Positions 31,845-63,888 of a stretch of DNA of 64,000 bases are shown in pieces. Location of the stretch: contig NZ_CP011005.1 of assembly GCF_000950575.1 (NCBI RefSeq), positions 620,001 to 684,000 on the forward strand, written 5' to 3'. The translations under genes and the position numbers were made by a program. The first letter of the stretch is position 1; every line of letters starts with the position of its first letter. The notes under the pieces are model-generated. The model worked only from the letters and a program-made list of their open reading frames with translations. It ran no database searches and was not told where the DNA came from. The stretch is from Psychromicrobium lacuslunae (GTDB lineage: Bacteria; Actinomycetota; Actinomycetes; Actinomycetales; Micrococcaceae).

Positions 31845-31892
31845 GGCGTCAACCTTAGTTGACGCCTCTTGTTTCGTCAACTAAGGTTGACG
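31845..31892. promoter_or_regulatory. Mirrored pair of palindromes between glnE and a small HTH gene
   Basis: Bases 31847-31864 (CGTCAACCTTAGTTGACG) and 31875-31892 (CGTCAACTAAGGTTGACG) are exact reverse complements of each other, and each is itself a 7-4-7 palindrome; the first extends to 9-4-9 (31845-31866). The DNA could be a double operator for the HTH protein that follows. The RNA could fold as two small hairpins or one 18-bp stem with a 10-base loop, the first with a T-rich tail that would end the glnE message. Confidence 0.65.
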
Positions 31893-32141: not shown

Positions 32142-32549
32142 ATGTCACACAAATTATTTGTTAATATTCCGGTTGCTAACCTCGATGCCTCGGTGGAATT
32201 CTTCACCGGTCTTGGGTTCAGCTTCAATCCACAATTTACCGATGAGAACGCCACCTGCATGCTGGTGGGCGAGGACGCCTATTTCATGCTGCTGGTCCGA
32301 GAGTATTTTCAGAGCTTCACCGCCAAGCCGGTCGGTGACCCGAAGGCCGCTGATCAAGCTATCTACGCCCTCGGCGTCGATAGCCGCGAGGACGTGGATA
32401 CCTTCGTGGATAAGGCACTAGCTAGCGGTGCAACGGTGGCCGGTGAGACCATGGACCAAGGTTTCATGTACCAGCGCAGTTTCTTCGATCTAGACGGTCA
32501 TCACTGGGAAGTTTTCTTCATGGACATGAGCCAAATGGGCGAAGCTTAA
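32142..32549 (+). CDS. VOC (glyoxalase/bleomycin-resistance fold) protein
   Basis: This 135-residue protein has two beta-alpha-beta-beta-beta units: KLFVNIPVANLDASVEFFTGLGFSF at the start, and DVDTFVDKALASGATVAGETMDQGFMYQRSFFDLDGHHWEVFFMDM at the end. The ending with DLDGHHWEVFFMD is typical of the PhnB/glyoxalase-like subgroup. Substrate unknown. Its last four bases overlap the convergent SRPBCC gene, leaving no room for a terminator between them. Confidence 0.85.
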   Translation: MSHKLFVNIPVANLDASVEFFTGLGFSFNPQFTDENATCMLVGEDAYFMLLVREYFQSFTAKPVGDPKAADQAIYALGVDSREDVDTFVDKALASGATVAGETMDQGFMYQRSFFDLDGHHWEVFFMDMSQMGEA

Positions 32550-32989
32550 GCACCCAGTAAGTATCGATTTCGCTGCTCGATCAGCTTGCGGAGATAGCTC
32601 TTAAGAAAGAGCTTCTCGGCGATCAGCCCGAGCACCCCGCAGGGAGCGGTGACCGTGAGAGTATCAGTCATCACGGTCACCGCTCCCTGCGTTTCAAATT
32701 GGTGCAAGTGGCGGAAGCGCTTAAACGGCCCGCGTTGTTGTTCGTCAATGAAGTGGTGGGGTGCGTCCAGCTCGACAATCTTTGAGGTCATTGTCCACCA
32801 GATGCCGAAGTGTTTCGCCCGCCAGGTCACCGTTTCGCCGAGCGCGATCTTTCCCTGAGTGACCCCTGCAATGGCCTTTTCATCGCTGGCCGACATTGAC
32901 TCAAGGTGGGCATCGATACTCAGGGAGGCGTCGAAGAGATCAGCTTGGGCCAGCGTCGACTCATTGCGTAAGGTGACCACGAAACTCAT
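32546..32989 (-). CDS. SRPBCC family ligand-binding protein
   Basis: The 147-residue protein fits the START/SRPBCC hydrophobic-pocket fold: FVVTLRNESTLAQADLFDASLSIDAHLESM, GETVTWRAKHFGIWWTMTSKIVELDAPHHFIDEQQRGPFKRFRHLHQF, and a long C-terminal helix (LIAEKLFLKSYLRKLIEQRNRYLL). It resembles the ligand-binding domain often fused to TIGR01777 proteins. The ligand is unknown. The coding region contains a perfect 21-bp inverted repeat (32638-32691) encoding QGAVTVMTDTLTVTAP. TATCCT lies six bases before the ATG, so the message may be leaderless. Confidence 0.82.
   Translation of the reverse strand: MSFVVTLRNESTLAQADLFDASLSIDAHLESMSASDEKAIAGVTQGKIALGETVTWRAKHFGIWWTMTSKIVELDAPHHFIDEQQRGPFKRFRHLHQFETQGAVTVMTDTLTVTAPCGVLGLIAEKLFLKSYLRKLIEQRNRYLLGA
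32638..32691. repeat. Perfect 21-bp inverted repeat inside the SRPBCC gene
   Basis: Arms 32638-32658 and 32671-32691 are exact reverse complements around a 12-base loop. The repeat lies about 90 bases beyond the VOC stop, within the coding sequence of the opposing gene. On the plus strand the second arm is followed by TTTCAAATT. It could terminate the VOC transcript. Confidence 0.7.
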
Positions 32990-63770: not shown

Positions 63771-63826
63771 AGCGAAAAGGTTTCCGTCCTACTTCGCCGC
63801 CCCGGTGCCTGAGTTCGCGGTTTAGT

Positions 63827-63860
63827 CTCGGATTCGCTAGTAATTACTAGCGAATCCGAG
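63827..63860. repeat. Perfect 34-base palindrome after sigA
   Basis: The first 17 bases (CTCGGATTCGCTAGTAA) are the exact reverse complement of the second 17, with no loop. It lies 57 bases after the sigA stop. It can fold as a hairpin in RNA or act as a symmetric protein site. Confidence 0.75.
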
Positions 63861-63888
63861 AGGGAACGCCGAACTCAACGGGAACGTC

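What the first reader, a model, noticed from the sequence alone, without database searches (positions are those of the whole stretch)
32638..32691. Perfect 21-bp inverted repeat buried inside the SRPBCC coding sequence
The convergent VOC and SRPBCC genes overlap by four bases, so no space exists for a terminator between them. About 90 bases into SRPBCC lies an exact 21-bp inverted repeat with a 12-base loop that fully encodes protein (QGAVTVMTDTLTVTAP). A stem this long within a coding region is unlikely by chance. It may be the VOC terminator, placed inside the opposing gene, with a constraint on both protein and RNA.
Basis: partly seen in the sequence, partly recalled or inferred. Interest (0 to 1): 0.6.

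Follow-up and report, generated by a model that had tools for sequence, protein, structure and literature searches.

The report
Gene-end hairpin inside the opposing gene
In a soil-type bacterium two genes run into each other head-on with no gap, and the long hairpin that probably ends one gene's message is written inside the protein-coding part of the other; this is an unusual placement of an ordinary device, and a sister species does the same with a different hairpin at the same spot.

Summary
There is a perfect 21-bp inverted repeat with a 12-nt loop at 32638-32691, inside SRPBCC and 88 nt past the stop codon of the converging VOC gene. The two genes overlap by 4 bases. No synonymous recoding (0 of 1,500) reaches 21 bp.
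It belongs to a genome-wide class. In 864 kb of this genome, 48 perfect inverted repeats have stems of 16 bp or more. Of these, 42 lie within 160 nt downstream of a stop codon and outside genes. Only this one lies wholly inside a predicted gene, although genes fill 91% of the sample.
Psychromicrobium silvestre, the only other genome found with VOC overlapping SRPBCC, also has a strong hairpin at the same codons (-47.7 against -48.3 kcal/mol), but with different pairs. Eighteen SRPBCC orthologues without VOC lack a hairpin there. Among 30 VOC genes, a hairpin of 12 bp or more follows 4 of 4 without a downstream GNAT gene and 1 of 26 with one.
Termination was not measured; the U-tract is weak. 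The perfect stem may have arisen by template switching. Verdict: new member of a known kind, an actinobacterial U-poor terminator hairpin, unusually placed.

The parts
32638..32658 (+). left arm of the hairpin (VOC-sense strand), CGCAGGGAGCGGTGACCGTGA; antisense to SRPBCC codons of the conserved LTVTAPCG motif or its partner arm: on the SRPBCC strand this stretch reads TCACGGTCACCGCTCCCTGCG and encodes LTVTAPCG
   Evidence: translation
32659..32670 (+). 12-nt loop GAGTATCAGTCA (the fold closes two further pairs and leaves 7 nt open)
32671..32691 (+). right arm TCACGGTCACCGCTCCCTGCG; antisense to the variable SRPBCC codons (T)QGAVTVM; the likely acceptor of a template switch
32692..32701 (+). 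weak T-rich tail TTTCAAATTG (5 T of 10) on the VOC-sense side; the SRPBCC-sense side reads GGGTGCTCGG (2 T)
32142..32549 (+). VOC / glyoxalase-superfamily gene, 135 aa, whose transcript the hairpin probably ends
   Evidence: PF00903, PF22677
32546..32989 (-). SRPBCC-type gene, 147 aa, that holds the hairpin inside its coding sequence and overlaps VOC by 4 bases
   Evidence: the P. silvestre orthologue hits Polyketide_cyc2 PF10604

Best explanation
The palindrome is the 3'-end (terminator-type) hairpin of the VOC transcription unit. Because VOC and SRPBCC overlap, it had to be written into the SRPBCC coding sequence. In the VOC transcript the region beyond the stop codon is untranslated, so the nascent RNA folds into a rod of about -48 kcal/mol followed by a weak U-rich stretch. 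That makes RNA polymerase pause and release, or leaves a protected 3' end, and limits antisense transcription across SRPBCC. In the SRPBCC transcript the same stem lies inside translated sequence and has no U-tract behind it, so ribosomes should keep it open and transcription should pass. Shown: the hairpin, its class in the genome, its dependence on gene context, and its counterpart in P. silvestre. Inferred: termination itself, its direction, and the gating by translation. Likely but unproven: the 21/21 match was made or perfected by a DNA template switch, the arm encoding the conserved TVTAPxG motif serving as template for the arm over a variable loop.
For: (1) In 864 kb, 42 of 48 perfect inverted repeats of 16 bp or more lie within 160 nt downstream of a stop codon and outside genes, 18 of them between convergent genes; this is the only one wholly inside a predicted CDS. 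(2) P. silvestre, with the same overlapping pair, has a hairpin starting at SRPBCC nt 300 (298 here), -47.7 kcal/mol, 12-bp outer stem, not reached in 1,500 synonymous shuffles. (3) Eighteen SRPBCC orthologues with other 3' neighbours have no stem there. (4) VOC orthologues: a hairpin of 12 bp or more within 250 nt in 4 of 4 without a GNAT gene directly downstream, 1 of 26 with one (Fisher p about 2e-4, my arithmetic, not corrected for relatedness); where space exists (L076, L100) the hairpin is intergenic. (5) Tail polarity 5 T against 2 T of 10. (6) Template switching: left coding arm 2/8 amino acids identical to P. silvestre, right arm 5/8, no length change.
Against: No RNA data. The U-tract is weak, and mycobacterial RNA polymerase was reported both to need one (Czyz 2014) and not to (Ahmad 2020); both titles are in the reference list of PMC12288462. 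The hairpin starts 88 nt past the stop, further than most of the class and than the 50 bp quoted for mycobacteria. The pairs are not homologous between the two species (right arm shifted by about 7 codons), so conservation is of place, not of pairs. Only two genomes have the arrangement. The scan did not list the site, but its rules exclude loops over 8 nt and ask for 5 T in 8. Thresholds were set after seeing the data.
Confidence: 0.7

Rival explanations
1. Mutational by-product only: a recent replication template switch (quasipalindrome correction) turned an imperfect inverted repeat in SRPBCC into a perfect one. The frame survived, and the palindrome has no function.
For: Perfect 21/21 match; the arm over the variable loop looks like the copy (2/8 identities against 5/8), with no length change. 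Template switching is a documented source of perfect stems (PMC8794818) and is discussed as a source of coding palindromes (PMC6649704).
Against: It does not predict a second strong hairpin at the same codons in P. silvestre, the absence in 18 orthologues with other neighbours, or the match to the genome's gene-end hairpin class.
Confidence: 0.15
2. RNA-stability or Rho-associated 3' hairpin (a variant of the best explanation that overlaps with it): the VOC transcript is ended elsewhere, by Rho or by collision with opposing polymerases, and trimmed back to this stem, which shields it from exonucleases.
For: Most class members lack T tails: 2.8 T of 10 on gene-facing sides, the same as on the other sides. 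Rho-dependent termination dominates in mycobacteria, and Streptomyces has many U-poor structured 3' ends.
Against: It cannot be separated from intrinsic termination by sequence. The T-richer tail on the VOC side leans slightly towards true termination.
Confidence: 0.25
3. A regulatory hairpin acting in the SRPBCC mRNA itself (translational pausing, RNase III site, attenuation).
For: The same stem folds in the SRPBCC transcript at -48.0 kcal/mol.
Against: SRPBCC orthologues with other neighbours do not have it; presence follows VOC context, not SRPBCC.
Confidence: 0.05
4. A mobile palindromic repeat (REP/MITE-like) inserted in the gene, or a chance or assembly artefact.
For: The genome does carry dispersed palindrome families.
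Against: No other exact copy of this arm in the genome; no length change against P. silvestre, so no insertion; chance excluded by shuffles; the frame is intact and conserved.
Confidence: 0.03

Closest known systems
I-shaped / U-poor intrinsic terminators of Actinobacteria (mycobacterial I-shaped; Streptomyces 'HS-U-lack' 3' ends)
   Same: Long, very stable GC-rich stem at a gene's 3' end with little or no U-tract; numerous elsewhere in this genome.
   Different: Lies 88 nt past the stop and inside the opposing coding sequence; its tail has 5 T of 10, between I-shaped and canonical.
Bidirectional terminators between convergent genes
   Same: A perfect palindrome at a convergent gene junction; many class members lie between convergent genes here (18 of 48).
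   Different: It sits wholly on one side of the junction. For the minus strand it is inside translated sequence with no U-tract, so it should work in one direction only.
Antisense 3' ends / terminators inside the neighbouring gene (49 of 1,427 transcript ends in Streptomyces clavuligerus lie in an opposite-strand ORF; PMC8269248)
   Same: Same topology: a transcript ends inside the gene on the other strand.
   Different: Weakly structured ends there had a higher share of antisense ends; this one is a perfect 21-bp stem.
Template-switch (quasipalindrome-corrected) hairpins and coding palindromes (PMC8794818; PMC6649704)
   Same: Perfect complementarity, one arm apparently copied from the other, both arms coding.
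   Different: Here a plausible function, a neighbour's terminator, explains why it is kept.

Membership tests
U-poor (I-shaped) intrinsic terminator of Actinobacteria | stable stem-loop downstream of a stop codon | tested here: met
   21-bp perfect stem, -48.3 kcal/mol, starts 88 nt after the VOC stop
U-poor (I-shaped) intrinsic terminator of Actinobacteria | no U-tract after the stem | tested here: inconclusive
   TTTCAAATTG, 5 T of 10: more than the class mean of 2.8 here, less than a canonical tract
U-poor (I-shaped) intrinsic terminator of Actinobacteria | usually within about 50 bp of the stop codon (as reviewed for mycobacteria, PMC12288462; a typical, not a strict feature) | tested here: not met
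   88 nt from stop to stem; 69 nt in P. silvestre. The shift puts it beyond the overlap, inside the opposing gene
U-poor (I-shaped) intrinsic terminator of Actinobacteria | transcripts end at the stem without Rho | not testable with these tools
   needs in vitro transcription or Term-seq
canonical (L-shaped) intrinsic terminator | stem followed by a strong U-tract | tested here: not met
   only 5 T in 10, interrupted by CAAA; the terminator-pattern scan did not list it, though its loop limit of 8 also excludes this 12-nt loop
bidirectional terminator | terminates both strands | not testable with these tools
   the stem is symmetrical but the tail is not, and the minus side is translated sequence
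template-switch-derived palindrome | one arm is a copy of the other, seen against an outgroup | tested here: inconclusive
   left coding arm diverged (2/8 amino acids), right arm conserved (5/8), no indel; the only outgroup is about 65% identical in protein, too far to see one event
REP/MITE-like mobile palindrome | multiple copies; insertion against an empty site | tested here: not met
   single exact copy; no length change against orthologues

The most novel reading that the evidence does not exclude
Overlapping convergent genes force one gene's terminator into the other's coding sequence, and selection for that hairpin has rewritten the host protein's variable loop independently in two species. 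The terminator turns over (different pairs, same place) while the protein tolerates it, and translation of the host gene makes a symmetrical palindrome work in one direction only.
Probability: 0.3. Interest if true: 0.55.

Novelty: new member of a known kind. Interest (0 to 1): 0.4.

Why it matters
Convergent genes that overlap have no room for a terminator, and how such pairs end their transcripts is rarely shown. Here the hairpin's presence follows gene context across genomes, and a sister species has a non-homologous hairpin at the same codons. This offers a clean natural test of how a terminator and a protein sequence share the same bases, and of whether translation of one strand makes a symmetrical palindrome act in one direction.

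Tried and rejected
A first scan of orthologues with loops up to 20 nt suggested that no relative has a hairpin and pointed to a purely mutational origin. Allowing longer loops showed the P. silvestre hairpin, and that view was dropped as the main reading. Rfam: only sub-threshold microRNA/snoRNA models that like any long hairpin. Mobile repeat: rejected. Chance: rejected. The pattern-based terminator scan does not list the site, a limit of its rules. A first survey of convergent pairs cut the window at 120 nt and missed the stem; it was replaced. The paper searches gave general precedents only; the library lacks most subscription journals.

Full report
OBSERVATION. The window holds VOC (32142-32549, +; glyoxalase superfamily, PF00903) and SRPBCC (32546-32989, -), which converge and overlap by four bases. 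A perfect 21-bp inverted repeat with a 12-nt loop lies at 32638-32691, 88 nt past the VOC stop and inside the SRPBCC coding sequence. With protein and codon set fixed, 1,500 shuffles never gave 21 bp (most 6-8, maximum 19). The arm occurs nowhere else in the genome as an exact copy. SRPBCC is under protein selection: codon-position identities to P. silvestre are 76, 76 and 44.5%. The window's genome is of the genus that contains Psychromicrobium silvestre (P. silvestre contig NZ_JACBYQ010000001.1 has the same length, 1,688,342, as G004:C1).

A CLASS OF HAIRPINS. In 864 kb of this genome (the window plus forty 20-kb stretches) there are 48 perfect inverted repeats with stems of 16 bp or more. 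Of these, 47 are not contained in a predicted gene, and 42 of those lie within 160 nt downstream of a stop codon (18 between convergent genes, 24 beside a single gene end). One lies wholly inside a predicted coding sequence: this one. Genes cover 91% of the sample. The stems mostly lack a T tail: 2.8 T in the first 10 nt on gene-facing sides, the same as on other sides. That matches what is reported for actinobacteria: U-poor, highly structured 3' ends in Streptomyces (PMC8269248, PMC12207403) and I-shaped terminators in mycobacteria (PMC12288462). A few class members belong to dispersed repeat families, so the class is not purely terminators. A smaller second case of embedding is at L048:2237-2270: a 13-bp stem inside a real gene (anthrone-oxygenase-like), 35 nt past the stop of a converging gene.

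THE COMPARATIVE TESTS. (a) P. silvestre is the only other genome found with VOC overlapping SRPBCC. On the VOC-sense strand it carries ACCCCAGCGGGC...GCCCGCTGGGGT with an inner GACCTC/GAGGTC, predicted -47.7 kcal/mol against -48.3 for the window's stem. It starts at SRPBCC nucleotide 300, against 298 here. None of 1,500 synonymous shuffles reaches 12 bp. (b) Eighteen further SRPBCC orthologues, from genomes where the neighbour is not VOC, have no stem there; their longest stems anywhere are 6-9 bp, with one of 11 bp at the other end of the gene. (c) Of 30 VOC orthologues examined, 26 are followed on the same strand by a GNAT acetyltransferase gene, with the match starting 2-137 nt downstream; only one of these, with the widest gap, has a hairpin of 12 bp or more. 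The four without GNAT (window, P. silvestre, G003, and L100 from another genus) all have one, of 21, 12, 14 and 20 bp. In G003 and L100 there is space and the hairpin is intergenic; where SRPBCC overlaps VOC it is embedded. Fisher's exact probability is about 2e-4 (my arithmetic), overstated because most of the 26 come from one genus and the cut-off was chosen afterwards.

WHAT IS NOT CONSERVED. The base pairs. The left coding arms fall on overlapping codons in both species, but the right arm is codons 111-118 here and about 118-121 in P. silvestre. So there is no base-pair covariation: what is kept is a strong hairpin at that place when VOC converges on SRPBCC.

MECHANISM. Most likely the hairpin ends (or caps) the VOC transcript. 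The VOC-sense tail is TTTCAAATTG; the SRPBCC-sense tail is GGGTGCTCGG. The VOC 3' region is untranslated and free to fold, whereas in SRPBCC mRNA ribosomes pass through the stem, which could make a symmetrical palindrome act in one direction. This last step is inference. Termination cannot be told from Rho-dependent ending plus trimming by sequence alone.

ORIGIN. The coding right arm (LTVTAPCG) belongs to a motif conserved across the family; the left arm (TQGAVTVM) lies over a variable stretch and shares only 2 of 8 residues with P. silvestre, against 95 of 146 overall, with no length change. A template switch copying the conserved arm onto the variable arm would do this in one step; the PNAS paper PMC8794818 reports mutation patterns in RNA genes consistent with template switching that creates and maintains hairpins. 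Stepwise selection cannot be excluded with the relatives on hand.

STANDING. Terminators inside neighbouring or opposing genes are known (49 of 1,427 ends in S. clavuligerus; review PMC7154746), and U-poor hairpin terminators are standard in this phylum. The find is a clear, unusually perfect example with a good comparative argument, not a new kind of system.

Noticed in passing
window 31847-31892: Two copies of the palindrome GTCAACCTTAGTTGAC / GTCAACTAAGGTTGAC directly upstream of a 66-aa helix-turn-helix gene (from about 31909); the motif occurs nowhere else in the genome and is kept upstream of the same gene in two other species of the genus (L072:3663-3710, L073:4092-4137). Looks like an autoregulatory operator pair.
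   Followed up: partly
genome-wide, e.g. L066:1714-1770, L060:9357-9415: A dispersed palindrome family, CGAGTGTGCAGATCTAC in inverted pairs 40 bp apart, about 33 copies, none in the reversed-pattern control; REP/MITE-like.
   Followed up: partly
window 63826-63861; L064:15744-15783; L052:14031-14070: A second dispersed palindrome family (AGCGAATTCGAGACT / AGCGAATCCGAGACT arms, pairs 25 bp apart), several dozen arm matches in the genome.
   Followed up: partly
L048:2237-2270: 13-bp hairpin inside the 3' end of a real gene (Anthrone_oxy PF08592), 35 nt past the stop of the converging gene: a smaller case of the same embedded arrangement.
   Followed up: partly
L072:3925-4260 and L073:3641-3865: SRPBCC remnants broken by frameshifts or truncation in two other species of the genus, still lying next to the helix-turn-helix gene: the gene seems dispensable in this genus.
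   Followed up: no
VOC orthologues L077-L103: In most of the Micrococcaceae-type relatives examined this VOC gene is followed on the same strand by a GNAT acetyltransferase gene (26 of 30), a conserved two-gene unit that the window's species does not have at this place.
   Followed up: partly
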